The notes beneath the pieces were generated by a model that saw nothing but the letters and a program-made list of their open reading frames with translations, was not told where the DNA came from and ran no database searches. The position numbers and the translations under genes were made by a program. From contig NW_013546367.1 in assembly GCF_000760515.2 (NCBI RefSeq), forward strand, positions 1-38,039: 38,039 nt of DNA. The letters are read 5' to 3'. This document shows, piece by piece, positions 612 to 38,039 of the stretch. The number at the start of each line of letters is the position of its first letter. Within the stretch, counting starts at the first letter, position 1. Source of the stretch: Mitosporidium daphniae (Eukaryota > Microsporidia).

Positions 612-2188
612 TCAACAGTTCATATTCACATAAAAAAGCCTAGCTTCCTCCGTTGCAGATTCATTGGTAATTTCAAATTGATTGTGAGGCGGGATTCTGA
701 ACTCGGCTCCATCAACGGCTATGAACGATGTAGTATGTATTGTGACCTTACATACTCCGGAGCAAAGGAAAAAAATCTAAAATGAAACCAAAAATGTGTA
801 CGATTGACATCGGGCCTGAATTTGAATTGGGCTTTTTCCCACACCGAGCAGGCAGCACAAGGGAACCAGATGAAAATGCCCCCTCTTGTGTAAATGTAGA
901 TGCCACAAAAAATCGATCTTTCCTTGAACTTGAGGATACATCGATGTCGTTATGGCTTATCATTAGCTCTATGTCATGAGAATTGGAAAAGGTTACTTTG
1001 AGAAATCTCTGCTTTGGAGTGATCAGAATTGACAACAAATACGGGGCCCGAAACCTCCTTATGCTCTTCAAAACCAAGGCGCTCCAACCTATGAGCCAAG
1101 GACAAAATCTTCTTTTTCGGCAAATTCTTTCTACTCGCCGAAGAAATTGCCCCAGTACATGTTAACCTCCTTCTTTTTGTGCCCACTCGCTTGTTAGAAG
1201 CTTTGCTATCGTCCATTTCCGGGTACGTAATTACATCTAAAACTGCTGGAAGCGATAATTTGGCGCACGATTCACGACGCCCATAGACAACACGCTCGTT
1301 CTTCCAAAACTCCAATGGCCTATATTTCCTTCTATTTGACCGGCGAGGATGAGGCTTCAGGGATGCTTCCGTGATGTCCTCATAGTGATTTTCGTTGCTA
1401 TCTGAGTTGGTAGAAGATAACATGGTCTGCTCCTCATACTCAAAAAATTGTTCTTCCGGTACAATAATATGGCCCTCGGTATTGGATATTATGGCCTCTG
1501 TAGAAATCGTCTCTGGTGATAAAAGCTCCGAATCTGGGAATGGAAGCTCTGTGTAGGGATGAGGAGAATTGCTAGATTTGGCCGATCCAGACGGATCAAC
1601 GTCATGAGTGTCCACCGTGTTGATGCTTGTAAATGAGAGTTGAAAATAGGATTCTGAAACGTCCAAACACTGGACATCATCGATATTGGTGGTCAACTCT
1701 ACACGTTTATCAATGGCGTGGTCAACCAAACTAAGACTTTCCTTGTTTGAAAAATCATCCCCAATCACATGGATGGCATCTCCTCCATTAATCGATAATG
1801 TAGAGGCAGTTACTTGCTGTGTTGCATCAAAGGTGGGCAAGGAACTTGGAAATTTGCCATCACTGAGTGTATCGTTTTCAAGTTCAAGTTGATTAGAAAA
1901 AAATGCATCAACAGAGCAGTTGGTCTCAACAGAGCGATTTGTGTCAACAGCGACACCTTGAATAGGCTCAATCCTACTGGTAAATCTGACCTTCGGATTG
2001 GGGGATTTTGCTGCATTCCAGTATGCCTCTACGTTCTCGAGGTTGTGGTCATTCAATGGGATGTTCTTTGGCATCTCTATGCCGGTCCTACGTCCCGCGT
2101 CTGAGGGCGACAGCAGGGAAGCGATGGCTCCCTCCGAAAAGCCTCCAGAAGGCAAAGCTACAAAATCTGTTCGTGATGCTTCTTTCAA
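612..2188 (-). CDS. MIF2: CENP-C / Mif2 inner kinetochore protein
   Basis: CENP-C binds centromeric CENP-A nucleosomes and links them to the outer kinetochore. The predicted protein has 507 residues. Residues 282-304 hold the CENP-C motif (RRSNRRKYRPLEFWKNERVV), whose Arg and aromatic residues contact the nucleosome. The C-terminus is a cupin dimerisation domain: GSLVLPARCGKKPNSNS, then FFLCSGVCKVTIHTTSF, then a strand-rich end with FRIPPHNQF. This domain appears only after removing two introns, 969-996 (28 nt, GTAACC..CATAG) and 777-801 (25 nt, GTACAC..TTTAG). The first half is poorly conserved and acidic, as is usual for the family. Start is the first ATG of the long frame. A conventional long-ORF reading loses the last strands of the cupin. 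Confidence 0.9.
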
Positions 2189-2399
2189 CGTCCTCTATGG
2201 ATTTAGAAAAGAGGGGTTACTCGGGTTGATATAATCGAGTCAAGGGTCGCCTTTGACGGCTGAACTGATAATTCGTCCATGAATTTAAATTTCGGATTTA
2301 ATGTCAATTTTAATGCAATTTTTCATTTAGCGGTTTTGGATCGACTGTTTAAATATGGTGGCGAGCAGTCGTTTGAAGGGGTATTGATATTGACTGCCA

Positions 2400-3054
2400 T
2401 TAGAACACACGTTCCGATCGAGCGGTGCGTTTTCGCTTTCTCTTTGCGGATGATTCTATAATTGAAATGTTCGGGATTTCCAAAAACCCCGCGGAGCCTC
2501 TAAAATCAGCCTGGCTATTTTGAAAAGATGTTGACCTGTTTCCTAGGAAATCCGAAGCAAGGCCCAAGTAACCATACCTGGATGCCGGCTCGATATATGC
2601 TCTCTGGGTTTCCCGTGGCAATTTTGCGATGCTTTTAACGCTTGATTTAGCGCCGTAATTTTGAACTCCAAATATAACTGCTGCTGACGGGCCTGGTAAT
2701 TCCAGAACGATAAGGCTCTATTAGCAACATCGAGAATGGTGGACGGCGAAAGACCGGCCAAAACCATCTATCTGCTAAGTCCTCCGTACATCTACTGATT
2801 TCCATTCGGTTTCTGGATCGAGGTTTGTAAAAAAGATATCCTTTTCTGCAAACAAGTCTGAATTGCAGGCTGGACATCGCAATTTGGACGTGAAAAACTT
2901 GGTTCCGCACTCTTCGCATATGATATCTAAATTGCTTATTGATGTCAAACCTACGAGAACACGAAGTTATGTATGCTCGGTCGGTGAGAAAAAGCTTCCC
3001 GCACGCAACGACATTGCAATAGAGCGAAACAAATTCATCCCCACTACAATTCAT
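2400..3054 (-). CDS. CCNB1IP1: HEI10 / CCNB1IP1-like RING E3 ligase for meiotic crossovers
   Basis: HEI10 (CCNB1IP1) is a RING-type ubiquitin or SUMO ligase that marks crossover sites on meiotic chromosomes. The spliced protein has 187 residues. It carries a RING of CNVVAC, CSH, CEEC and CPAC pairs in the first ~55 residues. The signature MVLAGLSPSTILDVANRALSFW then leads into a coiled-coil stretch and a basic Ser-rich tail (KRKRKR). Three introns are inferred: 2927-2954 (28 nt), 2768-2795 (28 nt) and 2543-2577 (35 nt). The first splits the codon of the RING histidine, so without splicing the finger is destroyed. The first two are well fixed by family similarity; the third rests on frame restoration in a poorly conserved tail. 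It is divergent from the Mpv17 gene, with 66 bases between start codons. Confidence 0.88.
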
Positions 3055-3120
3055 GGCACCAGATAAAATTTCAAATAATGCATAAAATTTTTAACTTCAA
3101 TTTGATTTCCAATCTTTCAG

Positions 3121-3858
3121 ATGTTTAAAAACTCTGCCCGGTTCTACAATCATTTGCTAAACCGCTACACATATCCCGTACAAATGGCGTCTGCCGGCAT
3201 GCTTTGGTTTTCGGGTGATGTCCTCTGCCAATACTTGGTTTGGCACGCCAGCTCGGGCACCGAGCTTTCCTGCTGTACGTCTGCCACATGCCCAGAGTGC
3301 ATTTGCGATTCTACAATGACACCTGTGCAGCGGGAGCGCTCCACATTTACTCAGCAAATCGACTGGCCAAGATCTGTTCGAATGACTTTGTATGGAACGT
3401 TTTTTTCTGCGCCAATTTATACATTCTGGTTTACCCTTTTAGAAAAGCTTTCAACACACACGTTCAAATCCTACCCGAGCTCCGTGATACCCTCAAAGCT
3501 GCTCAAAACTCCCTCCCATCTTCAAAGCGCAAAAGTTTCCAACGCAACATCCAGATTGCTAAAAATAACTGCCTTCAAGACTTTCCTTGACGTAATCGTA
3601 TTTGATCCTTTCTATTTGTCGTTCTTTTTTACCGTCTCCGGCTGCATGGAAAATAGGTCAAAAGAGGATATCAAAAAAAAGCTGCATGACGAGCTTTCCA
3701 CAACGTATTTGACTGGCGTTGCTGTGTGGCTTCCAATTCAATTCGCCAACTTCCGATACATTCCGGTCCCTTATCAACCCTTGATCGTCCAAGGTGTAAA
3801 TCTTTTTTGGAATTCTTTCCTTTCTTGGGTCCAACACAAAGAATCTAGGAATCATTAA
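3121..3858 (+). CDS. SYM1: Mpv17/PMP22/Sym1-family membrane protein
   Basis: Members are small four-helix proteins of the inner mitochondrial or peroxisomal membrane, thought to form channels. The 245-residue protein shows the family landmarks: SGDVLCQ near residue 30, IDWPRSVRMTLYGTFFSAPIYTFW in the middle, and the C-terminal signature GVAVWLPIQFANFRYIPV followed by FWNSFLSWVQH. It has no intron. An unusual feature is an insertion at about residues 40-78 that contains five cysteines within 15 residues (CCTSATCPECIC) and has no counterpart in typical Sym1 proteins, which run about 180-200 residues. TTTCAG lies directly before the ATG, resembling a splice acceptor, but no GT donor exists in the preceding 60 bases. 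Whether it is mitochondrial or peroxisomal cannot be told from sequence. Confidence 0.88.
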   Translation: MFKNSARFYNHLLNRYTYPVQMASAGMLWFSGDVLCQYLVWHASSGTELSCCTSATCPECICDSTMTPVQRERSTFTQQIDWPRSVRMTLYGTFFSAPIYTFWFTLLEKLSTHTFKSYPSSVIPSKLLKTPSHLQSAKVSNATSRLLKITAFKTFLDVIVFDPFYLSFFFTVSGCMENRSKEDIKKKLHDELSTTYLTGVAVWLPIQFANFRYIPVPYQPLIVQGVNLFWNSFLSWVQHKESRNH

Positions 3859-3991: not shown

Positions 3992-4214
3992 ATGGAATAT
4001 AAGGAGCTTCCGGCAATTCTCTTTCCTTTCTCGCTCAATGGTACCAAATTTCTGCTGATTTAGTTTAGAAATGCAATTAAGAACACTGGTGGAGGAGCAG
4101 TCGATTTTATTTATCATTCACATGCTCATAGTGCTGATAATTGTTTGCATTTTTCTCATCGGCCTTACCATTGGATATCTAACGCAAGGACCAAAATCAG
4201 ACCCTAGAAAATAA
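3992..4214 (+). CDS. Small single-pass membrane protein (64 aa), one 28-nt intron
   Basis: Two exons join across a 28-nt intron (4041-4068, GTACCA..GTTTAG) to give a 64-residue protein. The N-terminal ~28 residues are soluble (MEYKELPAILFPFSLNE). A run of about 25 residues almost free of charge (ILFIIHMLIVLIIVCIFLIG) forms one transmembrane helix, and a short basic tail ends KSDPRK. The intron length matches the commonest intron class of the neighbourhood and the join is in frame, which supports a real gene. I do not recognise the family. It ends 3 bases before the stop of the convergent RNase H2A gene. A 90-codon open frame on the opposite strand (3845-4117) is less convincing. Confidence 0.55.
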
Positions 4215-4217
4215 ATG

Positions 4218-5458
4218 TCACCTCCGGTTTATTAGGGTATTTGAGGGCTTAAGGCCTAAATTAAGTGTAACCCTCGTGTTCAATAGGTCTGTGCCATTAT
4301 CAGCCATTCGATTGTGTGCGTTTAAGGCTGCCAGAGGCGTAGCCTTTGCCAAGCACCCCTGAAATGGGCCGGTAGATTCACCGCTTTTTGGCCCTTTAAA
4401 AAAGCTAGAAAGCTTCCGCTGGCCACAACTTGGAATCGCATCAGCTTGCTTGTGCATTTTTGCCTTCTTGACCTCCACTGTCCTGCATTCAACACTGCTG
4501 CCAAGCTCAGAAATCGTTGGAACAGGCCACTCTATTTCAATAGCATGTTCTTGCAGGATTTTTTCGCACGTCGACCAAGAAAAACGAATCAAGTCAGCAA
4601 AGCCAAAAAACGGCTGAATATTATTATTCAGCCAACCGATGGTTACTGGATCTGAAAGTCAGTTTGAAAAGCAGGCAGTTACCTCCCGGGTATCCCGATC
4701 CAAACTTTTTGTTTTGAAACCGATCTGTTTTAGCGTTGCTGGCAAAATCCCAGTTTTCCAAGCAAACATCTCTGAAAACCTGAAGATTAGCGCGACACAA
4801 GGCACCTTAGCAAGAATGCTGGCCGCAGATACCATTGGATATAAAGAATCTGCCTTTGGCGAGACCGTGAATTTGATTTTTGGAAATTTAGACGAAAGAA
4901 ATCTCTCCAGTGAGGCGGGCACGCCCACAGTATCGATCCAAAGCTATGGAAAATAAAATCGCCATCTTTACGGTAGTGATATTTATTCCCTTGGAAAGAA
5001 CACGCTCGATCAATTCTACTATTGCTAGATGCGATAGCGTATTAAGGTTGATCTTGTTCCTAATATTGTTGCTCATTAAAAGCGACCTACTTTTTTAGCA
5101 TGGCTTGCGATATTTCAACAGCAGAGATTGGTTTGATCAACCAACCAAACTCTGCTGAAGCTCTGGCACTAGTCAGCGATTTGATAAAGTTGTTTCTTTG
5201 GTCTGCAGAAAGTGTCTTCGAATCTAACATTAAGACTGCAACATGATGGATACCTTGGACCCCCAATTGCTTTATATTCGCCTCCTCGTGTAAAGGGCAA
5301 AATGCTATGGAATATACAAGAGGACCTTTCAAGTTACTTGAAGTGAACATACCAAGAACCGGCCCCCTTCCGGCCTCATCGATGCCCCCACAAAATGGCG
5401 CCATCCCACTTTTCACTTGTTTGGGAAACGCCTCAACAGGCGGCAACAACGCAGCCAT
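4218..5458 (-). CDS. RNASEH2A: Ribonuclease H2 catalytic subunit A (RNase HII family) with C-terminal PIP box
   Basis: RNase H2 cuts RNA in RNA-DNA hybrids and removes single ribonucleotides from DNA. The spliced protein has 374 residues. Catalytic landmarks are GGIDEAGRGPVLG (Asp27, Glu28), DSKTLS, WIDTVG and SPKADSLYPMVSAASILAK, then FGSGYPGDP and FADLIRFSWST. Four introns restore this order: 5060-5090 (31 nt), 4944-4971 (28 nt), 4780-4805 (26 nt) and 4652-4682 (31 nt). Family similarity stops at about residue 275. The extra tail of about 100 residues contains QRKLSSFF (near residue 308), a perfect PCNA-interacting motif. The start at 5458 is preferred over an upstream in-frame ATG at 5506, which would overlap the Nup53 stop. 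Confidence 0.93.
4398..4421 (-). other. PIP box (PCNA-interacting motif) coded in the RNase H2A tail
   Basis: The eight codons read Q-R-K-L-S-S-F-F, an exact Q-x-x-[ILM]-x-x-[FY]-[FY] match, followed by basic KGPK. It sits in a low-complexity, probably disordered tail outside the catalytic fold, where such motifs normally work. Confidence 0.75.
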
Positions 5459-6561: not shown

Positions 6562-6903
6562 TTGAATAAAATAATGAAGGATGTAAAAATTAAATTAAAA
6601 ATTATCTTCAATTAATCAGCATGCACTTAAATGGAAAGTCAATGTTTGATCTTTGATCATGCATCAAAGCCAGTAATTTTCCAAACTTTACTTGAAGTCA
6701 AACCGCATTGAAGCGTATGGGATTTTTTTCTGTCATAACTCGGGCGTTGAACCCGGCATTCGGTATTTGTGTGATGCTAATTAGCAGAGAAAGATATTCT
6801 GACGGCCATTATAACGCAGTTTTATGAGTTTTCTGTAGATTTCCTGTCGTTTTGGTACAAGGTTGGATTTTCCTGCTGATTTTAGATCATTTATGGAAGG
6901 TTA
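6562..6903. other. Divergent intergenic spacer between NUP53 and the TAG lipase
   Basis: No protein gene is visible here. The Nup53-proximal 50 bases are very AT-rich (AAATTAAATTAAAAATTA). At 6862-6892 a GTACAA..GCTGATTTTAG segment of 31 nt could be a 5'-UTR intron of the lipase gene, ending 11 bases before its start. A B-box-like GGGTTCAACGCCC lies on the minus strand near 6740-6754, but no tRNA can be folded around it. Confidence 0.4.
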
Positions 6904-8828
6904 ATGGACCAAGTGCTCATTAAAAACGAGCTGATGCTTGGCATGAACAATGCCACGAATTATTCCGAATGGCTTCAGTTTGCCTCGCAATTGGATATCT
7001 TGGAAGGTAAAAATGCAGCGTTGCTAACGCAGCACTTTAGGCCAACATTTATGGCGACTTCAAGACACCTCGTCCGTGTATGATTATGAACTGCTTTCTC
7101 GCCGATTGGAAGAAATGCAAAGCGCCTACTCTTGGGCAGATGTCAATGCTGTCGCATTTTTGCTTCGAACAAGCATGTCAAGAAATATCGGCAACATTGG
7201 CGCAAAAGAGCTGTACCGGTACTCTAGAATAGGCACGAAATCATTGATCGAAAAATACTTGAAGCAAACGTCTTCGCTGATTGATTATGTGGTGTCGCAA
7301 GAGTCTTATTTTCAAAACATCTCGCCGCCACAGCTGGACGGCCGAATACATGGGCTACCTTTATATTTGCCTTCAGAAGCCACGGAAGTTTCTTCCGTTT
7401 CAAGATCCCCAATTCCTGCGTCCGGCAAAAACGATTCGTTTCACAACATTTCCTCTGCCGACCTGATAATGAGGCAGCTATCTTTCTTTTCTGACTTGCG
7501 ACATACACTTGGAAACTCTGCATTGATGTTATCCGGCGGCGCTACGCTTGGCATCCATCATATTGGCGTACTCAAATGCTTGTATGAGCAAAAAATGCTA
7601 CCTCGCATCCTATGTGGGTCGTCAGCGGGGGCCATCGTGGCCTCCATGGTAGCTATTCGTTTGGATTCTGAACTTCAAGAAATCCTTGCATCCCTTGACG
7701 ACGTTTCTTGGCATTTCTTTGAAGGCCCAGATCAACACCTCAAACATACCACCTTTCCGTTGGCCAGATTCGCCAGGCAGCTTATCCGGCTCATACGAGA
7801 TGGCGCCGTTTTCGATAGCGACGTTCTCTCCGAATTTTTGCGTGAACATGTCGGTGCAACGGTCACCTTTCTAGAGGCCTACAATCGCACCCGACGCGTT
7901 TTGAATGTTGCCGTGTCATCGACCACGCCATATGAAATGCCTCGCCTTTTGAATTATTTGACATCACCATATGTGCTGATTTGGACGGCAGTTGCTGCGT
8001 CTTGTGCAGCTCCAACTCTCTTTAAATCCAGTAGGATTCTTGTAAAAACCCCGTCTGGGGAAATCATCCCATGGTCGGGCTCGGATGATGCAACTTGGAT
8101 GGACGGGTCTGTTGAAAATGACCTTCCAATATCCAGAATTGCACACCTGTTTAATGTAAACTTTTTCATCGTATCGCAGGTTTCCATTTTGGGGCTTATT
8201 TTAGGTTAATCCACACGTGGTCCCTTTTCTCACAAAGGGCGGTATCCGCGAATCAAGGCTTGATTCGTTTAAACGCATTGTGTGCCATGTGTTGAGGGAA
8301 GAAATCCTTTTTAGGCTCCCAATGCTGATTGATTTTGGCCTTGTTCCCAGACGGCTGGGCGTCTTTTTAAGAAACATCCTCTCTCAAAAGTACGAAGGCG
8401 ATGTGACAATTGTTCCAAGCACCATAGCCTTGACAGACTTGCTGAATATTTTTACGGCTCCCACTTCAGACAGGGTCCATTCAGCGGTTTTACGAGGCGA
8501 GCATGCCACTTGGCCATATCTTGCCTTCATCCGTTCCCAGACCTATGTGGAGATGAAATTAGACAGGGTACTTTATGCGCTAAAGTGCAGATTGTTAGAG
8601 CAGTCTTGGAGCCGTGCCCCACGGGAGCTTCTGAGGCCGATTGGGTTCACCCCATCAGCCGAGCTTGACAAAAATGGGTCTCCAAGCAACTCGAATGCAA
8701 ACGACAGCTCTGTTGTATGGAACGAAGAGGCCGCCGTGCCTCCTCTGTTGGGTGAACTGGGTTGGAAATACCCTAGCAATCGAATTTCGCCTTTTCTTAA
8801 CCACACCAGCTATCCAAGGAGTAGATAG
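6904..8828 (+). CDS. Patatin-domain triacylglycerol lipase (Tgl3/4/5-SDP1 type)
   Basis: Enzymes of this group hydrolyse storage triacylglycerols on lipid droplets. The spliced protein has 621 residues. An N-terminal DUF3336-like region (YSEWLQFASQLD..LWRLQ..YDYELLSRRLEEM) precedes the patatin domain. The oxyanion loop is SGGATLGIHHIG, the nucleophile elbow GSSAG (Ser229) and the catalytic Asp lies in WMDGSVENDLP (Asp389), completing a Ser-Asp dyad. The C-terminal part keeps GEHATWPYLAFIRSQTYVEMKLDR, typical of Tgl4/SDP1. Introns are 7007-7040 (34 nt, with GCTAACG branch-like site) and 8180-8204 (25 nt). The start is the ATG at 6904; an ATG at 6893 meets a stop after three codons. It is a full-length, probably active lipase. 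Confidence 0.9.
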
Positions 8829-10370: not shown

Positions 10371-11160
10371 ATGGTGAGGCTCTCTTTGGATTTGATTGAG
10401 CACTCTCCGGTATTCACAAATGCCATTGGCGATCGAGAGCTTGACTTGCGGGGTATCCTTGTGTGCTGCTTACAGATTAGGTTGTAAAATTGTGGCAATT
10501 GAAAATCTGTCTTCGACCCGTGATCTCCACGATACCATTGATCTTTCGGACAACGAAATACGGGAGTTGGACAATGTTCCTCCTCTCTTCAGGTTGAAGC
10601 ACCTGTATCTCTCAAACAACAAAATATCAAAAATAGACCCTGCCCTTGCGCAACGGGTTCCGTTTCTGCACACGCTTATTCTAAGCGGAAATAATATTTC
10701 GGAGCTTACAGACCTGGTCCCTCTGGCCGGATGGTCTGATTTGAGGCATAAAAACACCTATTACAAACCCCAATTAGAGGGGCTTTCGTTGATCGATAAT
10801 CCAGTCTGCAAAAAACCCAACTACAGACATTTTCTGATTTCGCTGATCCCAAGCTTAAGGGTTTTGGATTATTGTAAGGTTACAGACAAGGTACGTTACG
10901 CCAACTTTTTCCAAGGAACGCAAATATGTGCAAGAATTGTTGCAATCTGGCGTTCTTTCCGCTTCAGATTCCTCCACCGCAGTTCTTGTCAAAAAACAAG
11001 ACGAATATTCGCAGCAGAAGAAGGAGCGGATGAAGGTATTTATTTGTGCGTCGGATTTATATTCTAGGCTGCCATTGCACAGGCAACGTCGCTCAGTGAG
11101 ATAAGGCATTTGGAACGCGCTTTCGCATCCGGCTACATTCCAGATGACCTCGCTAGCTGA
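10371..11160 (+). CDS. LEA1: U2 small nuclear ribonucleoprotein A' (SNRPA1 / Lea1)
   Basis: U2A' is a leucine-rich-repeat protein that binds U2B'' and the U2 snRNA stem-loop IV, so it takes part in branch-site recognition. The 234-residue protein follows the family from end to end: VRLSLDLIEHSPVFTNAIGDRELDLRG, CKIVAIENLSSTRDLHDTIDLSDN, LRR blocks, NPVCKKPNYRHFLISLIPSLRVLDYCKV and the C-terminal AAIAQATSLSEIRHLERAF helix. It needs three introns: 10453-10480 (28 nt), 10891-10915 (25 nt, AAG acceptor) and 11036-11067 (32 nt). In a region full of tiny introns it is a fitting neighbour, because it belongs to the machinery that must recognise them. Confidence 0.94.
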
Positions 11161-11224: not shown

Positions 11225-13413
11225 ATGATCTTGTTGTGCAAAAATATTTTTTCTTGCACCCGACAATATTCAGTGATGTCCACTCGTGCTTTTTTCAATG
11301 GCTTCCATCATATCGATGGGAGGGATATTAAGGTAGACTTTTCGCTTGATGCAAATGGCATCAAAGACAAGTGCAGGGATCTCATTTCTGCGGCCCAGAT
11401 GGCATACGATTCCATTTCGTCGCTTTCCGACACGTCGAGAACGTTTGAAAACACGGCAGAACCCATTTCACTTGTGGAGGGATATCTGGCTACTTTTTCT
11501 TCCTCGCTCACATTTCCCCAATATGTTTCTACAGATAAAAAGGTGCGAGACGCCTCCGTTGAGGCCAATAAGGCCATCGACGATTTTCTGGTCGAAGTAA
11601 GCATGCGCGAAGATTTGTATGCTGCCATTAAGGCCATCCCAGACGTCGAGCTGTGCAATGCAACGGATAAGCGTTTAGTTTCCCATATGCTTCGACGCTT
11701 TCGCCGCTCCGGGCTTGACCTTTCCGAAAAAAGCGATAGGGATCTGCTCAAGGAATGGAAAAAGCGAATTGCTGCCATGTCGATTGAGTTTTCCGCCACT
11801 ATTGGAGAAGATACGACCTCGTTGACCTTCACTCGAGCGCAACTAGATGGTCTTAGCGACAATCAGCTTTCTGCTTTTGAAAAGCATGGAGAGCTCTTTG
11901 TGGTTACCATGAAATACCCAGACTACAATGCCGTGCTAAAATACTGCAAGGTGGAAGATACTCGGAAGGCAATGAATTTGGCTTATTCAAGTCGCTGTAT
12001 TGAAAATGGGGAGCGCATCGTGGAGACCTTGAAACTGAGACACAAGTGTGCCACTCTGTTGAAGTACCCAGATCACGCTTCGTTTCAATTGGAAGAAAAA
12101 ATGGCCAAAAGCCCCGCTGAAGTGATGTCTTTTTTGGAAAAGATTTCGAAGCGCCTTACCCCACTGATTGAGCAGGAGCGCCTGTTGCTTCTCAAAGAAA
12201 AAGAGGCCGAAAAAGGGCCCTCGCCCGATCTAACCCTGGAGGCTCATGACTTTGCATATTACAACCGCATCCAGGCCGAGAAAATTGGCATCAATGAGGA
12301 AGAAATTTCAAAGCATTTTCCGCTCACCAAAGTTCTTTTGAAGATGCTTGAAATCTACGAGCGCGTGCTGTGTTTTCGCTTCAAAGAGATTCCAGCAGAC
12401 CATCTATCTTGGCATCCTGATGTTCGTCTGTATCAGGTCGGGGTTTCCTAATATAATTGATAGGCTTTGGACGGGAAAACAAACAATGTCATGGGATATT
12501 TCTTCATTGATCTTTTTCCACGAGAAGGCAAGTACAGTCATGCAGCTTGTTTTCCCCTCCAGCCTGGAATGATCGACATTTACGGCGAAAAGGACTCGAC
12601 GCCTCACTATCAGACTCCCGTTGCGGCAATGGTTGCCAATTTCACCAAACCAGATTCGGAAGGAGAGTCCCTTTTGAAGCATCAGGAGGTGGTCACGCTG
12701 TTCCACGAATTGGGGCACACAATGCACCACATCTGCTCTAAAAGCCGCTACTCAACATTCCATGGCTTTTCTGTTGAGGGAGATTTCGTGGAAGCCCCAT
12801 CCCAGATGCTGGAAAATTGGTGCTGGAACTCGCAATCCCTTTCATTCCTCACTGAAGACTCGCTGCTGGAATCGAGCTTGAAGGCTCTTTTGGCATCTAA
12901 AAACTTGAATACTGGGTTCCATTATCGGAGACAAATTTTCTTTGCAATATTTGATATGTCCCTGCATTCTATTTTTCCTGATGGCATTTCTCCGGATGGT
13001 TGGACCTATGCTTTGCTTGTAAAGCACTGGAAGGACCTTCGATTCGCCCTTACGGGAATCAAAGAAGATAAAGAAAGCTTTGGTGCAAACACCTTTGGCC
13101 ATCTGATGAGCGGATGTATTTTTGAGGATTACTTTAGCTTTTTTTAGATGATGCCGGCTATTATGGATATCTGTGGAGCCTTGTTATTTCGGAGGATTTG
13201 TTTGCAACTAAATTTAGCCATCCCGGCGCTGTGTTTGATGGCGAAGTTGGCCTTTCCTACCGCACTGAAATTTTGGAGCCTGGGTCGAACAAGTAGGCTT
13301 TTCTTCGCCCTTAACTTATCAGGGATGCTGCCGAAATGGTAAAATCGTTCTTGGGACGTCCGTTCAATGAAGCCGCTTTTTGCAAGTCTCTCGGAATCCC
13401 ATTAGATAATTAG
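11225..13413 (+). CDS. PRD1: M3-family zinc oligopeptidase (thimet oligopeptidase / saccharolysin type)
   Basis: These metallopeptidases degrade short peptides in the cytosol or mitochondria. The spliced protein has 699 residues. The zinc site is HELGH (residues 485-489) within VTLFHELGHTMHHICS, followed by FHGFSVEGDFVEAPSQMLENWCW with the third ligand Glu. The upstream DLFPREGKYSHAACFPLQPG is typical of THOP1/Prd1. The substrate-binding SGYDAGYYGYLWS appears only after splicing. Introns are 12437-12463 (27 nt, CCTAAT branch-like), 13116-13147 (32 nt) and 13293-13322 (30 nt). A possible mitochondrial leader (MILLCKNIFSCTRQYSVMSTR) precedes a second in-frame ATG at 11276, so dual targeting is possible. 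The similarity is closer to thimet oligopeptidase than to mitochondrial intermediate peptidase. Confidence 0.92.
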
Positions 13414-13626: not shown

Positions 13627-16600
13627 TCAGTTGATACGCATGGAATCTCCTGGACGCGCCCACGAAGACGCCGATGCGGGCGAGATTGGCTGAGATACAG
13701 AGGGCGTCTGCGAAAACCGAGAAAAAGAGCCTATCTCCCTGATAGGCAATGGCGATCGTTCTGGATGCTCTATTGCAAGAAGATCAAGATCTTTGTCAAA
13801 GCGATTGCTTTCTAGATTGATATACTCATATAACGAATCTTCAGCAGAAAGTACGGGTGCCGCTGCATTAGGGTCGGCTGCCGGCGAAGCGGTTGCGATA
13901 AGTCTTTCAGAGGATTCGTTTTGGCCTCCCAATGGACGGATGTGGTGGATTTTTAAAGAGCCTCTCCCAAAAGCTACATCGAATTCGGTAACTCCCGGCA
14001 CTGTCCGGGCAAGTCGCTTCATGGTTGCCTCCATTGATTCTCCAGGATGGACAACAAAAAGCGATGGAACCCCAAAATATGATCGCGCTGTTGAGAACGA
14101 CGATGTCCTTGATGAGGGCATTAAAGAGAACTTTGAGGATGATGACGATGACGGCGATGAAGATGACGATGAAGACTGTGATGGCACATGTAGAGCGATC
14201 GCAGCACCAGCGGAAGGTCTGCTGTGCACTATTCGAATAATGTGATTAGAGCCATCATGATGCCGAAGGTCGACCAAATAAAGCAACGAACGCCCCCCAA
14301 CCACATCCAGTTTGTCCTCATGGCCAAATACGCGGACAACCATCCCATTCACGGTCTCCAAAAGCTTCAGGGATGACATTTCAGATGGGAGAAAGCTGGG
14401 AATAAAATCGATCAGCGAAAAGGTGTCGTGACAATCTTTAAAAGAGCACTTTACACGCTTGCGCAATTGAACCAGATAGTTGAGGGACATTTCAAGCGTA
14501 TCTTTGCCCAGAGAGGCACAAACAAACTCTCTGTGTGTCTGCCGGTAAAATAACACCTCCTGCCCAGAAGGCGGCACCGCAGTGGTGATTTGAATGCCCG
14601 ATTTCCGACGCGAAAGAATCCCCTTATACCCTGCCATAAAGACAACATCTCGGACACTAATTTTGTGCAAATTTTGATGAGGGAGCGTAATCCATTCATT
14701 GGACTGTGAAAGCAATTTAACATCGCCGACATCAGGAGCTGCCCCGTCAATCAGCAGCGGGAAAGAGGCAAAATCGAGCTTGCAAAGAAGATCACCTACA
14801 ATCAATAAATAAGCGTACCCAGTTGGACGGAGAGCGGAAAATGCACGTTCTCAATAATAGGCACTTCAACGCCCATATTTACCAAGGCCTCGCCAAAAAG
14901 CACCGAAAGACAAACGGTCGAAAATTGACGCTCAAAGGAGGACAAATCCATTCTGTTGAGAATTATAAGCACAACGCCGTCCATGCTAGACTCATCCAGC
15001 TGCGTGCCAATCGGCACGCAGGGATCGACAAAGCAAGAAGAGAGGGGGTCTCCGGCATCAATTTTTGCCTCCTCTACAAGAAGCCAATCAGATAGGTCTT
15101 CAATTTCGAGAGCAGATCGAATGGAATTCCCAATGGCGGAGTGTTTCCCCACCACCATGGAGGCCTGGAACCGCAACGAGCCATCCTGCACATCAAATGA
15201 CTTGATGAACAGCAAAACCTGGCCGGCTCGCTCAAGATTCTTTGGAGACCCCTCTCCTTGCGGAAAAAGAAGCTCTTCAGATCGAGGAACGTCATACTCG
15301 ATGCCATCATCTAAGGGACAGGCGCCATTTTTGCGATTGGATCCATCATCGCCACTGGATTGATCTGAATCCCCATCTATTTTACAGGTAAGATAGAGAA
15401 ACGCATTTGCGAGCTCCCCAAACGAGGTACCAAGGGATGTGATGGGTTGGATTTTTCTCTGCGCACCTTCTGCTCCTCCATGAGCCTCAATGAGATAGAA
15501 CAGCTGGCAGGAAACTGGAATTCCATATTCCTGCTCTAACTCCATGGCGAATGAGCCAAGCAGCTCAGAGGAGGGCTAAAAGTAAGAAAATGCGGGAAAA
15601 CCTTTGTGATGATGGTGGAAGACTCTAAAGCACTGTCAAGAGGAAGCCCGCGGTCCGAATATTCGCCAACCTCTCTTAGAACGGTGTCTGTGAGGAGCCT
15701 AACACTTGCAAGGGATTGATTTTGGTGCCGCCGTACGGTCTCCTCTTCGCAGGAAGATGAGTTTGATGGTGTAAGAACATGGTCTGGAGCTCTCGGGATA
15801 CCTCCGACCATTTCAATCCATCTAGATTCAAGGACATAGACGAGCATATACGCACTGGTGTGCCTCTTTATCATCACGCTGGCAGACATCTTGGATGAAG
15901 AATCTGCGCCAGAATGGGTCCCCAGCACCGATTGGGAGTTTCCAAAGTTTTCATCAATGGCCTCTTTGGCGGACACCGGATAAACGTTCTCATCATCGAA
16001 ACGTAGCCAACGACCCCACGATGAATTCGAATCATCACTAGAGGCTCCGCCTCGAATGAATGCATAATAGTGGCCTCCACCGACATCTCCAGAGTGTACC
16101 AATACTGCGTGCAGACGATACCGAAGCGAAGACTTTGGTGAATCGGAACATGGCGGTACCGCGGCTAAATTGGATGATTTCTGCATAGCCATGGAAGAAG
16201 CAGATGCACCATTGCCCAGCATGACAAAAGGAGCCATGTCAAGCACTTCTGGAAACTCGAACCGATCGTTGATCTAAATTGAGGAGGCCATCGCGGTACC
16301 TTGACCACTCGATCGCGTTCAAAATCGTACTCAAATCGCTTCAGCTGGATGTGCAGCACGGGAGGCAGCGTGGCAAACACAACTCCAAGCTTTGCCTCTT
16401 GAAGCCCATAGCCTTCGGCATTGTATGAATTTTCGCCAACCAGAAACTCTGGCTCCACAAAAGCGGCAAGGGAGCGCTCGAGTGATGGCATTCCTTTAAC
16501 GGTCACTGCGACATCGTAAAAAGGCTCTTTCCCCGTGCTCTCAAAAGGCACATTGAGACACCGCACATAGCGAAGCGTCTCGCCCCTGAAGATCTCGTCG

Positions 16601-21419: not shown

Positions 21420-21472
21420 GCTAAATTTATATTTTGTATCCATAAGTGTATTAGATAGATGGTGTGGACTTG

Positions 21473-23629: not shown

Positions 23630-25331
23630 TCATTTCCCGGAAATCATGATGGGGGCGATTCGCTTTATCGGGGCCCGTTCTGAATGTGTGTTTGGTTGCA
23701 CATTTGCAGGCTGCAAATTCTCCTTTTCAACAGGATAGCTTTTCTCTGCACTCGCATCTTCAACCGTAGGCATAGCGTGCAAAGTTGGGATTTCCCGTCT
23801 GTGTGGCACATTATGCTCCTGCATAGCGCCAGTTCCCGAAATCAAGGGCGTTATTGCGCGTTTTTTCTTCTTTTTAAACATCAAAGAGAGATCAAGAATC
23901 ACGTCATGTCGCTCTATCATTCTAAATGTGCTTGTAAGGTTATCGATTATAAGCCCATCTTTTTGGGGACAAATTTTGGAATCGATTGCAAATAAATTCA
24001 TAAACGGCCGCATAGAAAACGAGGATAAATATAGGCTGTCTTGCTCAGAAGTTTGCCCAAGCGAAGAGTAGATCCTGGGCACGCCGTTCAAGGTGGGGTT
24101 CGACTGACCATCGGCCCGCCAAGAGTCCTGAAGACGTTTACGCGAAACAGGGTCATTCATATCTTGGTCGAGCGAAAATACATCCCTTTCATCCCTTTCG
24201 TCACACATCAGTTCGTCATCGGATAAATATCCATGAGGTACAAGCCAAGAGGAATCTTCCTCTTCTTCTTCACCTTCGCCCTCGTCATCTTCGGAGCCCG
24301 AGTCGCTTTGATCGGTGTCTGAGATGTTTTCAATTTCGCCCTCAAGCTCATCGCAGTCATCCTCCCATTCATTGTCAGACTCAACGGAATAATCCAGCTC
24401 GAGCTCCTTTGATAGGTCTTTGGCAAATGGACGACGGCCACTTATGATAAGGGACTGCTTAGAGAAGGTTCCAAAATAGCAAGGCCGGATATTTTCGGCA
24501 AAATGGAATAATTTAAAGCGGACCATAGGAAGCAGCGAAAGCTGTTCGATTTCTTTAGATGATCGCCGATTGTTGTTTTCATTTGTCGTCTCAATGGTTG
24601 CACCGGTGTTCCTTGTCTTTTGGAGCAGACTTTCAAATTTCGCCATCTTGACATTGGGCTTTACAAAAAACGTTGGAAAGTAGGACCAAAATCCGCTAGA
24701 AGACGAATGGGTTTGACTCTCCAGCAACATGGGATGCTCGCTAGAGCCTCCTTGATAACCGGATTCGTTTTCTTTTCGAACAATTGAAAAAAAATTTGAA
24801 AGCACAGGGCCAGAAGAAATCGAGGAGCTTTTCGGGGTGAAAGCCTTTCGTGCAGCCTTTTTCGGCGATGAAGTAATGGCCTTCGAAATCGGGCGAAGCT
24901 CTGCTGCTGCTGCGTCAACAACAATATCAAGAGGCTCTATCGTATCTGTTGTGGGCGAAGAGGCCATCTCTGGACTGTGCTCTGTAGCCGCCTGAAGTTT
25001 CCTTTTTGATTTGGCTTTGATTTTTGCTTTCTTTACAAGGCAAGAATGACATGCAAGCGAGGAAATTTTTTCTAAAAGACTTGCTCTGAGGAATTATAGT
25101 GAACGAATACCTTTTTTGTGCACAATCAATAGCCTCGTTCAAATCGCAAACCAAACCTTCAATGATCTTGACATGGTCTCTGGCAAGCTCTGGAGCAACA
25201 ATGCACTCACTGTGCACAAAAGGCTCTATATCTAGTTCTTTGCGTGTCTCAATGGAAGCATTCTGTGCATGTTGTTCTAACCTGAGTACGCTTGCGGTCA
25301 CGTAAAGGCCCTGCCGAATCAGATCTTCCAT
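23630..25331 (-). CDS. RLF2: Chromatin assembly factor 1 large subunit (CAF-1 p150 / Cac1)
   Basis: CAF-1 deposits H3-H4 behind replication forks together with PCNA. The 558-residue protein contains the conserved block VRFKLFHFAENIRPCYFGTFSKQS, R-PFAKD, YSVESDNEWEDD, a strongly acidic run and WLVPHGYLSDDE. A PIP-like GPVLSNFF (about residues 166-173, coded at 24788-24811) lacks the first Gln but keeps Leu and the Phe pair. One 25-nt intron (25086-25110) joins a 74-residue N-terminal helical exon (MEDLIRQGLYVTASVLRL) to a Lys-rich segment and the main frame, with no stop. Without the intron the N-terminal part would look like a separate gene. The N-terminal region itself is not recognised. Confidence 0.88.
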
Positions 25332-25830: not shown

Positions 25831-27362
25831 ATGGAAGAGGCAAAGCGACTTGACTTGGAAAACCCTTCATTTAGATCCAAGTTTTTGATTCCCTTCGATG
25901 CGACATCTGGGAAGGAGAAGATATATCTTTGTGGGCATAGCCTTGGTTTACAACCAAAAGAGACCGCCGCTCGGGTTGCTGAAATGCTGCAGATCTGGGC
26001 TAACGAGTGCCTCCGCAATCTCTAACATCTTTAGTGCAAATTTGGGACATTATTCCGAAAATGGCTGGGGAGCTCTTGAGGACCAATGCGCTTTACTGAT
26101 GGAGCCGTTAATTTTTTCACCGCTACATGGCGAGATGAAGGGAACCATTGGAATAGGAAATACGCTCACCGTAAATCTCCATCTACTTTTGGCCAAGTTC
26201 TATTGTCCCACCCAAACGCATCATAAAGTTTTAGTAGAAATGCACATTTTCCCCTCCGATTTGGTAATGTATCTCGGTTTTATTGTAGTATGCTATCCGC
26301 TCGCACATATCATTCCATGGGTATGACCCTGACAGCTCTATTGTTTTTCTTGATGATCCCTCGTCCACGGAACATATCCTTGCATCGTTAGACCGAATAG
26401 AGGGTATTGCGCTTTTTTTGTTAGGAAACATCCAATTTCTTACGGGGCAAGCGTTCGAGCTAGGAAAGATTTTTTCGCATGCCAGAAAAAGAGGTTTGTT
26501 TATAAGCCAACACTTTTCTTGTCAGAATGTCTGCCACACCATCTTGATACTTTCTTGCGATCTTTACACCCCTAACCTGTATCCATCGCTTCATAGTTTT
26601 TATTTACACACGTGTTCGCTTTGTTAGCATACTAATGGGAATAGGTAAATGCTTATTGATAAATTTTGGCATCCCTGCTATTGGAGCTGACCTTGCCCAT
26701 GCGGTTGGAAATATCCCTTTAGCGCTTAACGAATGGGATGTCGACTTTGCCGTGTGGTGCACTTACAAGTACCTCAATGCAGGCCCTGGCTCTATCGGTG
26801 GGTATTACATAAACAAAAGGCATCTCGACAAAGATGACAAACTCCCAGCGTATGCATTTACTTGTTTTCATTGCAAGGCTACTGGGCTGGTGGGGAAATG
26901 AGCGATCTTCTCGGTTTCTGATGCTGCCCGGTATTGATTCGCTCCAATTTTGTAGATTTTCATCCAAGAGGCGATGCCGGGCGATATCTTGTATCCAACC
27001 CGCCCATTCTAAGTTTGGTCCCGGTCAAGGTTTCCCTGCAGCTGTTTCGTGATACGGGAGGCATTATCCCGCTTCGAGAACGATCCACGAAACTCACATC
27101 ATACTTGAGAAGCCTATTGGTGGAGCGGATCGGCCCACCAACGATCACCATCATTACGCCAGAAGGCCAATGCGGAGCTCAGCTTTCCATCTCCATCACC
27201 GTCATCCCAATTGATGAAGTTGCCAAACAGCTTCTGCTGGAAGGAATTGTTGTCGATACTAGGCGCCCAAATGTACTGAGGGTAGCTCCAACGGCTCTTT
27301 ATAATACGTTTGTGGATTGTTTCCTTTTTGTAAAGGCTCTTGCAAAAATTTTGTGCAAGTAA
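25831..27362 (+). CDS. BNA5: Kynureninase (L-kynurenine hydrolase)
   Basis: This PLP enzyme cleaves kynurenine or 3-hydroxykynurenine to (hydroxy)anthranilate and alanine in tryptophan breakdown and de novo NAD synthesis. The spliced protein has 424 residues, near the family length. Landmarks: [79 protein letters not shown] with the PLP lysine, [13 protein letters not shown], and a C-terminal [15 protein letters not shown]. Introns are 26007-26034 (28 nt), 26264-26288 (25 nt), 26494-26644 (151 nt), 26850-26877 (28 nt) and 26931-26955 (25 nt). The 151-nt intron is the least certain; it ends with TACTAAT close to AG and leaves a short KCLLINF insertion. The gene looks intact. Confidence 0.9.
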
Positions 27363-32148: not shown

Positions 32149-32740
32149 TTATTGGTCTGACGCGGCTTTCCCCACATGGCTGCTCTCGATGCCCAGCGAA
32201 TCCAACAATGCCCTTAGCTCTCCGTCTGAAGAGGGAAGCTGTGCTTTCGGCAGGTAATTCGCAATGTCGATTGCAATGGCGTCAACTACCTTGAAAGCCT
32301 GGCCGCAGTCGACACAGCGCCCGATTTCGCCCTTTGCCACGTTGAACCATATTGTCTCGTGGCTAGTCCGTGGCGCCCCTATGCACATGCGGAGGGATTG
32401 CGAGCTACGTACCTGTACAGCCGATAATCCTTTCATCGCCAGTGGCCTCCACCAGAATGGGATCCCCATGTGTGCCAAACCGGTCGCCAGGAAGCCACTC
32501 GTTGTCAAAGATGTTGATGCCATGCGTTTTTGCAAGATACTCCAGTCGCTCCAGCCCAACGGACATGTCAAAATCGGTGTATGGCCGGTCTGCAGAGGGG
32601 CCGGGCCCAACGATAGGCCTATATTCGCCATTTTGGGCACCAGAAGAGGAGCCAAGGCAGCGCCAGGACACAAGCCTTCCGTGGTGACGACCACACCGGG
32701 CCAAGTGACGCATGCATGCTGCGGACGCAATTTCGAACAT
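32149..32740 (-). CDS. COX4: Cytochrome c oxidase subunit COX4 (mammalian COX5B family)
   Basis: This zinc-binding nuclear-coded subunit belongs to respiratory complex IV. The spliced protein has 185 residues. A basic N-terminus (MFEIASAACMRHLARCGRHHGR) is a likely mitochondrial presequence. The core reads RLEYLAKTHGINIFDNEWLPGDRFGT, PILVEATGDERIIGCTG, then across a 34-nt intron (32379-32412) APRTSHETIWFNVAKGEIGRCVDCGQAFKV. The metal ligands look like the fungal Cys-His-Cys-Cys set, with Gly in place of the second Cys of the animal C-x-C. The C-terminus is about 35 residues longer than usual. It shares a tiny divergent promoter with ATP7. Confidence 0.9.
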
Positions 32741-32786: not shown

Positions 32787-33423
32787 ATGAACAACAGGGT
32801 TTTCAATTGGGCGTTTGCATTTGCGCATGTCATCCCCAGTCACAAGAAAATATTTACTTCCACCATCCAAAAAAACGAGGAGCTTCGTCGCCTTATTTTG
32901 GAGTTGAAGGAGACAAAAGGGAAGCTTTCTCGATTGGATTGGAATGCATATTCCAATGCTGCTATTTCGACACCCTTCATCAAGAAAGAAAATCCTGCCG
33001 CATTTATTGAAGATCTCCGAGCGAGTATTTCTTCCTTTTCGCCCAAAATTGACATTTCCATCGACAAGGAGTATGCTCTTATCGAGGCAGAGCGAAGTGC
33101 TCTGGTACCGCTTGTTTACCTACATTTAGATTGATGAAGCAACCGAAATAGAGAAAAAAGTGTCTGCAGAGATGGAGTTCACTTCTGATAAACTTGAACG
33201 TTACAACACGCTCACCAAGAAGCCGGTGGATGAATTTTGTGTATTGGTTTATTTTATTTTATCACAGGTTGATGATATATATTTTTTAGAGCCCGAGTTT
33301 AAGGAGGAGTTTTATCAGCTAGTTAAAGACGGATGCTGGACCGACTCTCCTCAAATCTACATGGAATGGAAGGCAAGACAGGCCGCCGCTGCCACCAATG
33401 GAGGTGCAGTTGCTCATCATTAG
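32787..33423 (+). CDS. ATP7: Mitochondrial F1Fo-ATP synthase subunit d (Atp7)
   Basis: Subunit d is part of the peripheral stalk of mitochondrial ATP synthase. The spliced protein has 194 residues, a little longer than the usual ~160-175. It is mostly helical and charged and ends with the family-like KKPVDEFCVDDIYFLEPEFKEEFYQLVKDGCWTDSP. Introns are 33105-33129 (25 nt) and 33241-33267 (27 nt). The second is a multiple of three without an in-frame stop, so unspliced mRNA would still be translated with nine extra hydrophobic residues. The identity rests on overall layout and the C-terminal pattern and is less certain than for COX4. The first ~25 residues may be a presequence. Confidence 0.75.
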
Positions 33424-33492: not shown

Positions 33493-34364
33493 ATGGTTTA
33501 CACGTCCTCGGCGGTTACGTCTTCTTCTGGATCGATGGGATCGTCTGGCGAGTCTCTATTTTGTGGGCCTAATGCAGTGAGCAATCCATACTCATTTCTT
33601 CAAGAGCTTGGAAGCGGCGAAACATCCGAGGTACCTTCCCTTTGTTCATCAACCGAAACTCTTTCCGAGGAGACCCCAAATCTTTCCTCCATCTTAAACT
33701 CCTTACAAAAGGAAAAGGGCACCGATGCTCTTCAATTGAAAACAAAGCTACCTTATGCGTGGGTATTTTGGTACCTTCGCCCGCCTCAAGGTCTCAAGTC
33801 GACCCAATTAAACTTTGAATCGCTTTTGAAGTATATCGGGACCATGCAAACTTTACAAGAATTTTGGTCTATTTATTTGACATTGAAAAGACCGGATGAG
33901 CTTTCCGTCGGAACAACTGATTATTCGTTCTTCAAAGAAAATATCCGTCCCGTTTGGGAGGATCCGGCAAATCAGCATGGTGGAAAGCTTGTCATACGTC
34001 TGAGGAAGAACAGCTCTGTGTCAACCAGAATTTGGGAATTACTGCTCCTTGCCCTGATTGGAGATGAATTTTCGGATCTCCAAGAACATATTTGTGGCGT
34101 TGTTTTTTCCATTCGTCCATATGAAAACTTTATCGCCATTTGGATGCCAAAGTCTGATGATCTGCCCCAAATACAAAAACTAAGGTATGTTTTCCATGTT
34201 AACTTCAATGTAGAGATCGACTTCGTAGCCTTTTTGGCCTTGCTCCGGATACTCTTATTGAATATAAAGCTCACAATTACGCCAAAGAAGGCGTTGCTCC
34301 TTCAACAGCGCGATCAAAGGCGTCAATCGATGCACCCTCCAGTGTTCAGGCGAATAAAGAATAA
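33493..34364 (+). CDS. eIF4E-family cap-binding protein (class II / 4EHP-like features)
   Basis: eIF4E proteins bind the mRNA cap. The spliced protein has 280 residues. After a Ser-rich N-terminal third comes the fold: YAWVFWYLRPPQG, QTLQEFWSIYLTLKRPDELSV, YSFFKENIRPVWEDPANQHGG, then IWELLLLALIGDEF and ICGVVFSIRPYENFIAIW. The cap-stacking Trp102 equivalent is kept (VWED), while the position of Trp56 appears to be Phe, as in 4EHP-type proteins. One intron of 29 nt (34185-34213) leads to the final exon (RDRLRSLFGLAPDTLIEYKAHNY), the usual C-terminus. Without splicing the last family helix is lost. TTTTCCAG stands 4 bases before the ATG. Confidence 0.9.
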
Positions 34365-37658: not shown

Positions 37659-37712
37659 CTATTTTTAAAAGTCATTGTTGCTTCAAACCCCAAATTTCAT
37701 TTTGCCATCCAT

Positions 37713-37804
37713 GCAACTTTGAGTCTTTTAGGGCTGCAATTTTGAGTCTTTTAAGGCTGCAACTTTGAATCTTTTAGCGCTGCAACTTTGAATCTTTTAG
37801 CGTT
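37713..37804. repeat. 4 x 23-bp tandem repeat in the PEX5/TCTP divergent promoter
   Basis: Units of the form GCAACTTTGAATCTTTTAGC plus three bases occupy 37713-37735, 37736-37758, 37759-37781 and 37782-37804 with few changes. They lie between the PEX5 start (37658) and the TCTP start (37853). The period is about two helix turns, so a repeated protein-binding site is possible. Confidence 0.9.
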
Positions 37805-37852
37805 GTAAAATTAAATTTGTCCAAAGTTGATTGGTAAACTTTTTTTAGTCCA

Positions 37853-38039
37853 ATGCTTCTCTATAAAGATGTCATAACAAGTGAGTTTCATATTTCATCC
37901 ATCCTCTCCCTCTTTGTTTTTTATAATCCTCTTATACCTAGAGGATGAATTGGCCAGCGATTCTTTTTGCTTGAAAGACGAAGGGTTTTTCTATCGGATT
38001 CAAACCAACTATATCAACAAAGCTGGTTTAAAAATCGAT
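37853..38039 (+). CDS. TMA19: Translationally controlled tumour protein (TCTP/Tma19), 5' part
   Basis: TCTP is a conserved cytosolic protein associated with ribosomes, growth control and stress. The first exon codes MLLYKDVITK, and after a 61-nt intron (37881-37941, GTGAGT donor) the frame continues DELASDSFCLKDEGFFYRIQ and runs off the window end. This matches the family start M-[IL]-[IL]-Y-K-D-[IV]-x-x-x-D-E-[LM]-x-S-D. Forty-two residues are visible, about a quarter of the usual ~170. The strong donor and long intron at the very start contrast with the tiny introns elsewhere. The 23-bp repeats lie about 50 bases upstream. Confidence 0.85.

What the first reader, a model, noticed from the sequence alone, without database searches (positions are those of the whole stretch)
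777..37941. Pervasive ultrashort introns with length peaks at 25 and 28 nt and few multiples of three
By restoring frame and family conservation I place 41 introns in 19 genes. Of these, 36 are 23-35 nt. Counts by length: 23 (2), 24 (2), 25 (8), 26 (4), 27 (3), 28 (8), 29 (1), 30 (1), 31 (2), 32 (2), 34 (2), 35 (1). Lengths of 3n+1 make up 20 of 36, 3n only 6. A shortage of 3n introns is known from Paramecium, where unspliced 3n introns escape nonsense-mediated decay. My detection favours frame-shifting introns, so part of the bias could be artefact. After removal all 19 genes give an integral codon count. Introns this short are rare outside ciliates, nucleomorphs and some microsporidia.
Basis: partly seen in the sequence, partly recalled or inferred. 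Interest (0 to 1): 0.85.

Follow-up and report, generated by a model that had tools for sequence, protein, structure and literature searches.

The report
Thousands of tiny introns in Mitosporidium
This DNA comes from Mitosporidium daphniae, a water-flea gut parasite on an early branch of the microsporidia, and its genes appear to be cut up by great numbers of ordinary but extremely short introns (mostly 23 to 34 letters), although the reported shortage of lengths divisible by three is mostly an effect of how the introns were first spotted.

Summary
The window is a contig of Mitosporidium daphniae: its HSP70 equals a deposited protein of that species, and a deposited U2A' protein lies on a contig of the window's length. 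Ultrashort introns are well supported. A self-trained gene model introns of 22-36 nt in 298 kb against 40 in a codon-shuffled null, and 48 of 23-35 nt in the window. Splicing raises Pfam scores, and six of six junctions checked fit homologues. U1, U2, U5 and U6 snRNAs are present: ordinary U2-type introns with weak signals. 'Few multiples of three' is not upheld: 14 of 48 in the window, 104 of 342 phase-known introns in the sample. Lengths 25-29 form one hump rather than two peaks. Only 3n introns without an in-frame stop look depleted, roughly 1.6- to 3.5-fold, as nonsense-mediated decay would predict. UPF2, UPF3 and Mago were found; UPF1 was not, in the 80% of the genome held. No RNA evidence was available. 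Known microsporidia have similarly short but few introns; this is an intron-rich member of a known kind.

The parts
10371..11160 (+). U2A' (U2 snRNP A') gene with introns 10453-10480 (28 nt), 10891-10915 (25 nt), 11036-11067 (32 nt)
   Evidence: LRR_9 133.8 bits unspliced, 175.8 spliced; three junctions fit the homologues that do not themselves read through; deposited protein P0241 splices the 25- and 32-nt introns and reads through the 28-nt one
11225..13413 (+). Peptidase M3 (thimet oligopeptidase-like) gene with introns 12437-12463 (27), 13116-13147 (32), 13293-13322 (30)
   Evidence: Peptidase_M3 113.6 bits first ORF, 183.9 second ORF, 375.9 spliced; three junctions fit 11 homologues
6904..8828 (+). 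Patatin/DUF3336 lipase gene; supported introns 7007-7040 (34) and, by frame only, 8180-8204 (25); the call 8156-8179 is judged false; calls 6763-6787, 6862-6885 and 8752-8776 are unproven
   Evidence: DUF3336 65.9 to 108.3 bits on splicing the 34-nt intron, patatin domain unchanged (94.4 and 93.4); 8156-8179 judged by a recalled lipase motif
4218..5458 (-). RNase H2 catalytic subunit gene; introns 5326-5352 (27, replaces model call 5305-5337), 5224-5253 (30), 5060-5090 (31), 4944-4971 (28), 4780-4805 (26), 4652-4682 (31)
   Evidence: RNase_HII 30.9 bits for the unspliced ORF, 138.2 with the model's introns, 155.4 with the 27-nt intron. The model's 18- and 24-nt introns near 4179-4221 are doubtful
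13627..18123 (-). USP7-like ubiquitin hydrolase gene; introns 16678-16701 (24), 16274-16299 (26), 15576-15601 (26), 14796-14818 (23)
   Evidence: UCH 50.7, 41.4 and 52.8 bits for single ORFs, 186.8 spliced; the last two introns rest on the gene model only
32149..32740 (-). COX5B gene with intron 32379-32412 (34 nt)
   Evidence: COX5B 32.0 bits unspliced, 99.2 spliced
32787..33423 (+). ATP synthase subunit d gene with introns 33105-33129 (25) and 33241-33267 (27, translatable)
   Evidence: No family hit for the first ORF; 21.5 bits with the 27-nt intron retained, 27.6 spliced
33493..34364 (+). eIF4E gene with intron 34185-34213 (29 nt)
   Evidence: IF4E 142.3 bits, profile to 144/158, unspliced; 151.0 bits to 158/158 spliced
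25831..27362 (+). Kynureninase gene; model introns 26007-26034 (28), 26264-26288 (25), 26850-26877 (28), 26931-26955 (25); calls of 21 and 103 nt uncertain, 27308-27335 judged false
   Evidence: Gene model; only KYNU_C found in Pfam, 64.0 bits, so most junctions are untested by homology
23630..25331 (-). CAF1A-like gene with model intron 25086-25110 (25 nt)
   Evidence: CAF1A_dimeriz 65.5 bits in the main ORF, intron from the gene model only
612..2280 (-). Gene of unknown family with model introns 777-801 (25), 969-996 (28), 2195-2220 (26)
   Evidence: Gene model only; no Pfam family for its main ORF
21476..23443 (-). HSP70, intronless in the model; identifies the organism
   Evidence: 100% identical over 656 aa to 'Hsp70 chaperone [Mitosporidium daphniae]' (P0130)

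Best explanation
The window is a contig of Mitosporidium daphniae, whose genome is rich in ordinary U2-type spliceosomal introns shrunk to about 23-34 nt. They are removed by a spliceosome with conventional snRNAs, probably by intron definition: a weak GTA donor, a weak YTNAY branch-like motif with its A mostly 7-8 nt before the 3' end, and TAG, CAG or AAG. Retained copies usually carry a frameshift or an in-frame stop and are probably destroyed by translation-dependent decay, so selection mildly removes 3n introns without a stop. Shown here: GT-AG inserts of a narrow length range, branch-like signals, homology support at tested junctions, presence of snRNAs, UPF2, UPF3 and Mago, depletion of stopless 3n introns. 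Inferred: actual splicing, intron definition, and decay as the selective force.
For: Organism. Self-trained model: 468 introns in 298 kb, 408 of 22-36 nt. Nulls: 40 of that length in 283 kb of codon-shuffled spliced sequence and 61 in 435 kb simulated. Other terminal dinucleotides fit worse: log-likelihood 5103 for GT-AG, 4519-4847 for 11 alternatives; 172 introns of 22-36 nt against at most 76, although totals are alike (224 against 195-261, 148 kb). Family scores rise on splicing. Six of six junctions checked fit. A deposited protein splices two of them. snRNAs U5, U2, U6, U1 over Rfam cut-offs, with the U1 5' end, U2 GUAGUA and U6 ACAGA seen (motifs recalled). Branch-like A at -7/-8. Stopless 3n depletion. 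UPF2, UPF3, Mago.
Against: No transcript evidence. In Hamiltosporidium, a microsporidian, 890 introns predicted earlier shrank to 98 once full-length transcripts were used (PMC10542269, passages), a warning for any prediction without RNA. UPF1 was not found by three family searches; the AAA_12 hits are a SEN1-like gene and one I did not classify. The false rate among stopless 3n calls is uncertain: the null predicts 16.5 of 30, yet of 15 compared in Pfam 10 clearly support splicing, 4 are neutral and 1 is against. 3n+1 introns carry fewer in-frame stops than expected (45 of 133, p = 0.009), which the decay idea does not explain. The model misplaces or invents some introns.
Confidence: 0.88

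Rival explanations
1. The interruptions are sequencing or assembly errors in a draft genome, and the genes are really continuous.
For: The window is a draft contig with one N.
Against: The inserts share GT-AG ends and a narrow length range that other dinucleotides do not give. The representative of a five-member protein cluster from 3 contigs, the longest 4,230 bases and so not the window, ends at the stop inside the 27-nt peptidase intron (P0001; the other members were not seen). Proteins of relatives read into a short insert at the same U2A' site (P0242, P0244).
Confidence: 0.02
2. A true Paramecium-type shortage of 3n lengths exists, and the gene model hides it by inventing 3n introns.
For: The null shows that false calls are mostly 3n: 24 of 40 in one run, about 19 of 29.5 phase-known per genome sample in ten runs. 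Subtracting them and correcting for recall leaves about 91 3n introns beside about 128 (3n+1) and 100 (3n+2).
Against: Pfam favours splicing in 10 of 15 stopless 3n calls compared and rejects 1, so fewer seem invented than the null says. 3n introns with a stop are not scarce: about 73 after correction, against about 63 if 3n were a third (my arithmetic). Even the lowest estimate is about 29% 3n.
Confidence: 0.2
3. The excess of in-frame stops in 3n introns comes from the 3' TAG and phase composition, not from selection.
For: TAG ends 321 of 408 introns and is in frame for 3n introns in phase 0, where 48 of 52 have a stop.
Against: The expectation was made from non-3n introns with the same ends and phases, length changed to the nearest multiple of three (55% with stop), and observed 3n exceed it (74 of 104). 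Within phase 1, 14 of 31 have a stop against 26% expected. The phase-0 skew of 3n introns is only p = 0.04 raw.
Confidence: 0.25

Closest known systems
Paramecium introns (PMC11334263, passages; PMC5014332, passages)
   Same: Very short introns (more than 95% of 20-34 nt in Paramecium), numerous; introns translatable on retention are depleted.
   Different: No clear overall shortage of 3n lengths here; three stop codons, and a 3' TAG that itself supplies an in-frame stop in phase 0; unrelated lineage.
Canonical microsporidian introns: Encephalitozoon cuniculi (PMC3629993, passages), Hamiltosporidium (PMC10542269, passages)
   Same: Same phylum; GT-AG introns of 22-76 nt (E. cuniculi) or mean 28 nt (17 confirmed, Hamiltosporidium).
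   Different: Those genomes have few introns (34 after a thorough search plus three more in E. cuniculi, 98 predicted in Hamiltosporidium) and, in E. cuniculi, relatively strict motifs; here about 1.2 per kb with weak motifs.
Mikrocytid introns (PMC10245619, passages)
   Same: Parasite with a reduced cell and many very short introns.
   Different: 224 introns of 16-17 nt with highly conserved sequence in M. mackini; 23-34 nt and variable here.

Membership tests
Ultrashort U2-type spliceosomal introns | GT-AG ends, narrow length range below about 35 nt | tested here: met
   408 of 468 calls are 22-36 nt; GT-AG fits best of 12 pairs tried
Ultrashort U2-type spliceosomal introns | Removal restores conserved coding sequence | tested here: met
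   for the genes tested there
Ultrashort U2-type spliceosomal introns | U2-type spliceosomal RNAs in the genome | tested here: met
   U1, U2, U5, U6 over cut-off; U4 not searched
Ultrashort U2-type spliceosomal introns | Excision seen in RNA | not testable with these tools
   No transcripts held
Paramecium-type 3n-depleted introns | Overall shortage of lengths divisible by three | tested here: not met
   104 of 342 raw (p = 0.09 for three equal classes); about 29-33% after correction
Paramecium-type 3n-depleted introns | Depletion of 3n introns without in-frame stop | tested here: met
   30 of 104 raw against 39-45% expected, p = 0.016 or 0.0006
Paramecium-type 3n-depleted introns | Nonsense-mediated decay machinery | tested here: inconclusive
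   UPF2, UPF3, Mago found; UPF1 not found
Canonical microsporidian introns | Few introns with strict motifs | tested here: not met
   142 of 195 gene models with at least one call; 5' splice site about 5.1 bits in the intron, 3.9 of them GT itself
Mitosporidium daphniae (source organism) | Identity to named proteins | tested here: met
   HSP70 100% over 656 aa; U2A' record on a 38,039-base contig

The most novel reading that the evidence does not exclude
Mitosporidium is a Paramecium analogue inside the microsporidian lineage: roughly seven thousand introns of about 27 nt, recognised with very weak signals by a conventional spliceosome and policed by decay. It would capture the stage at which microsporidian introns had shrunk to near the physical minimum but had not yet been lost, so that shrinkage came before loss.
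Probability: 0.45. Interest if true: 0.62.

Novelty: new member of a known kind. Interest (0 to 1): 0.45.

Why it matters
Microsporidia are a textbook case of genome reduction, and those examined have few or no introns. An early-branching relative with introns in most gene models, nearly all close to minimum size and with conventional U1, U2, U5 and U6 snRNAs, makes the order of events testable: intron shrinkage before intron loss and before spliceosome reduction. It also asks how a spliceosome fits a 25-nt intron with little 5' signal beyond GT. Practically, gene models of this genome can be wrong where such introns are missed, as one deposited protein shows.

Tried and rejected
Ciliate code: dropped, because the window's genes read in the standard code once introns are removed. 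Exact motif scans for strong splice signals found little or nothing, since the signals are weak. The C109 helicase was first taken for UPF1; sequence comparison points to SEN1. An overall 3n deficit was taken seriously after subtracting null false calls and given up when Pfam supported most stopless 3n calls compared. A first run of the dinucleotide control timed out with nothing printed; one search replaced it on 148 of 298 kb, starting from the trained codon usage. For the kynureninase, splicing of the 21- and 103-nt calls could not be decided. Rfam found nothing in the window itself. Haag et al. 2014, the first genome paper, and Whelan et al. 2019 are not held, so whether they describe these introns is unknown to me.
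Full report
What the window is. The window is contig C84 (38,039 bases) of a genome held as 4.66 Mb in 147 contigs. Its HSP70 (21476-23443, minus) is 100% identical over 656 residues to a deposited 'Hsp70 chaperone [Mitosporidium daphniae]' on contigs of which the longest has 729,536 bases (P0130). A deposited M. daphniae U2A' protein sits on a contig of 38,039 bases, the window's own length (P0241). M. daphniae keeps a mitochondrial genome, and its newer assembly has 5.83 Mb in 10 contigs (PMC12449221, passages; also PMC12534020, passages). The contigs held here therefore cover about 80% of it.

Are the introns there? I trained a gene model on 298 kb: the window, 247 kb fetched by place, and four search loci. 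It started from weak hand-set splice signals (GT, AG, a slight preference at two neighbouring positions, an AT-rich middle) and a uniform length prior, then re-estimated codon usage, splice profiles and lengths, the lengths smoothed over 7 and 3 nt so as not to favour any remainder modulo 3. It settled on 195 genes and 468 introns, 408 of them 22-36 nt. With real spliced coding sequence whose codons were shuffled, it introns, 40 of them 22-36 nt, in 283 kb; with fully simulated intronless sequence, 79 introns, 61 of that length, in 435 kb. Training with other terminal dinucleotides in place of GT-AG, from flat splice signals, gives lower likelihood in all 11 alternatives tried; these call as many introns in all (195-261 against 224) but at most 76 rather than 172 in the 22-36 range (148 kb). 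In the window the model introns, 48 of 23-35 nt.

Homology. Removing the introns raises family scores over those of the unspliced ORFs: peptidase M3 113.6 and 183.9 to 375.9 bits, UCH 50.7, 41.4 and 52.8 to 186.8, DUF3336 65.9 to 108.3, RNase HII 30.9 to 155.4, LRR_9 133.8 to 175.8, COX5B 32.0 to 99.2, eIF4E 142.3 to 151.0. The patatin domain, which no supported intron cuts, is unchanged (94.4 and 93.4). The three junctions of the peptidase line up with 11 homologues, and the three of U2A' with the homologues that do not read through. The deposited U2A' protein splices the 25- and 32-nt introns exactly as here but reads through the 28-nt one from another start. Two relatives read through a short insert at the same site, which back-translates to about 27 and 24 nt (P0242, P0244; the lengths are inference from protein).

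Not every model call is right. 27308-27335 cuts a natural kynureninase C-terminus, 8156-8179 cuts a lipase motif (both judged by recalled family sequence), and 5305-5337 should be 5326-5352. Introns of 18, 21, 45, 63-72 and 103 nt in the window should be treated as unproven, and many of the rest have only the model behind them. A microsporidian precedent calls for caution: in Hamiltosporidium an earlier count of 890 predicted introns fell to 98 with full-length transcripts, of which 17 were examined in detail (PMC10542269, passages).

Signals. Donors are GTA in 69%, with about 5.1 bits in the intron, 3.9 of them GT itself. The 3' end is TAG in 321, CAG in 50 and AAG in 36 of 408 introns. A YTNAY-like motif occurs in 274 of 408 introns against 205 after shuffling, with its A most often 7-8 nt from the 3' end (A enrichment at -7 and -8). 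U1, U2, U5 and U6 snRNAs are each found over the Rfam cut-off. They carry the conventional U1 5' end, U2 GUAGUA and U6 ACAGA (motifs recalled). I infer ordinary U2-type splicing by intron definition.

The modulo-3 claim. Among introns of 22-36 nt with known phase, 104 are 3n, 133 are 3n+1 and 105 are 3n+2 (p = 0.09 for three equal classes). To measure bias, real non-3n introns were changed in place to 3n length and the model run again: 226 of 232 with an in-frame stop and 95 of 122 without were found; 111 of 233 could not be made stopless. The source introns were ones the model had found, so recall may be somewhat high. The null predicts 16.5 false stopless 3n calls. Yet of 15 stopless 3n calls compared with the intron retained and removed, removal gains 4 bits or more in 10, changes little in 4 (cytidine deaminase, GNAT, Myb, WD40) and loses 8.7 bits in 1 (AAA_25) (ATP synthase d). 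Those 15 of 30 were chosen because they seemed to lie in known families, and two more were run only with the intron retained. Taking 13.5 to 30 as the true number and correcting for recall gives about 91-112 3n introns beside about 128 and 100, that is about 29-33% (my arithmetic).

What does remain is a deficit of translatable introns. If non-3n introns are changed to 3n length without selection, 45% have no stop. Observed are 30 of 104 (p = 0.0006, or 0.016 allowing for recall), and fewer after removing false calls. The estimated depletion is about 1.6- to 3.5-fold. The 3n introns lean towards phase 0, where the terminal TAG is itself in frame (52 of 104 against 90 of 238, p = 0.04). 3n+2 introns show no significant stop excess (62 of 105, p = 0.21); 3n+1 introns have fewer stops than expected (45 of 133, p = 0.009), which I cannot explain. 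Selection against translatable introns is reported as general in intron-rich eukaryotes (PMC11334263, passages), so this is the expected pattern, not a surprise.

Machinery for decay. UPF2, UPF3 and Mago nashi are each over their Pfam cut-offs; Mago's two exon matches lie 26 nt apart, where the model places a 35-nt intron. UPF1 was not found. Two of those searches rang in no control genome, and a fifth of the genome is missing, so absence is not shown.

Place among known systems. Microsporidia examined before have few or no introns (PMC3629993, passages; PMC7017984, passages); those of E. cuniculi are 22-76 nt, and Hamiltosporidium has 98 predicted introns, 17 confirmed with mean 28 nt. Here 142 of 195 gene models carry at least one call. 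Net of null calls the density is about 1.2 per kb, which would be about 7,000 in 5.83 Mb if the sample is typical (my arithmetic). The short length is therefore shared with the lineage, while the number and weak motifs are not. The 2025 genome paper has no occurrence of 'intron' in its main text and trained its gene prediction on proteins (term search and passages). Library searches for Mitosporidium with intron terms list no paper that, from its listing, describes these introns; of the 38 papers that name the species I looked into five by term search. The 2014 genome paper could not be read, and the deposited protein shows that some of these introns were annotated.

Noticed in passing
10371-10480: The deposited M. 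daphniae U2A' protein (P0241) begins at a different ATG and reads through the 28-nt first intron, losing the conserved N-terminus; other public gene models of this genome may have the same fault.
   Followed up: yes
13116-13147: A relative's peptidase (P0002, 57% identical) ends in a hydrophobic tail where this intron lies, as if read into an intron at the same place; P0002 and a U2A' relative (P0244) are both listed with a contig of 8,978 bases, suggesting conserved gene neighbours.
   Followed up: partly
L028 675-3361: SEN1-like helicase gene with model introns of 28, 27 and 25 nt; a second AAA_12 helicase lies in L029.
   Followed up: partly
300-490 and 21400-21420: Short runs of CCCTAA-like sequence between genes (9 ACCCTAA or TTAGGGT in the window), resembling the telomere repeat.
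   Followed up: no
37700-37800: Short tandem copies of a unit like GCAACTTTGAATCTTTTAGCG near the right end of the window (by eye).
   Followed up: no
3n+1 introns, 298-kb sample: 3n+1 introns contain fewer in-frame stops than length-altered controls (45 of 133 against 45% expected, p = 0.009).
   Followed up: no
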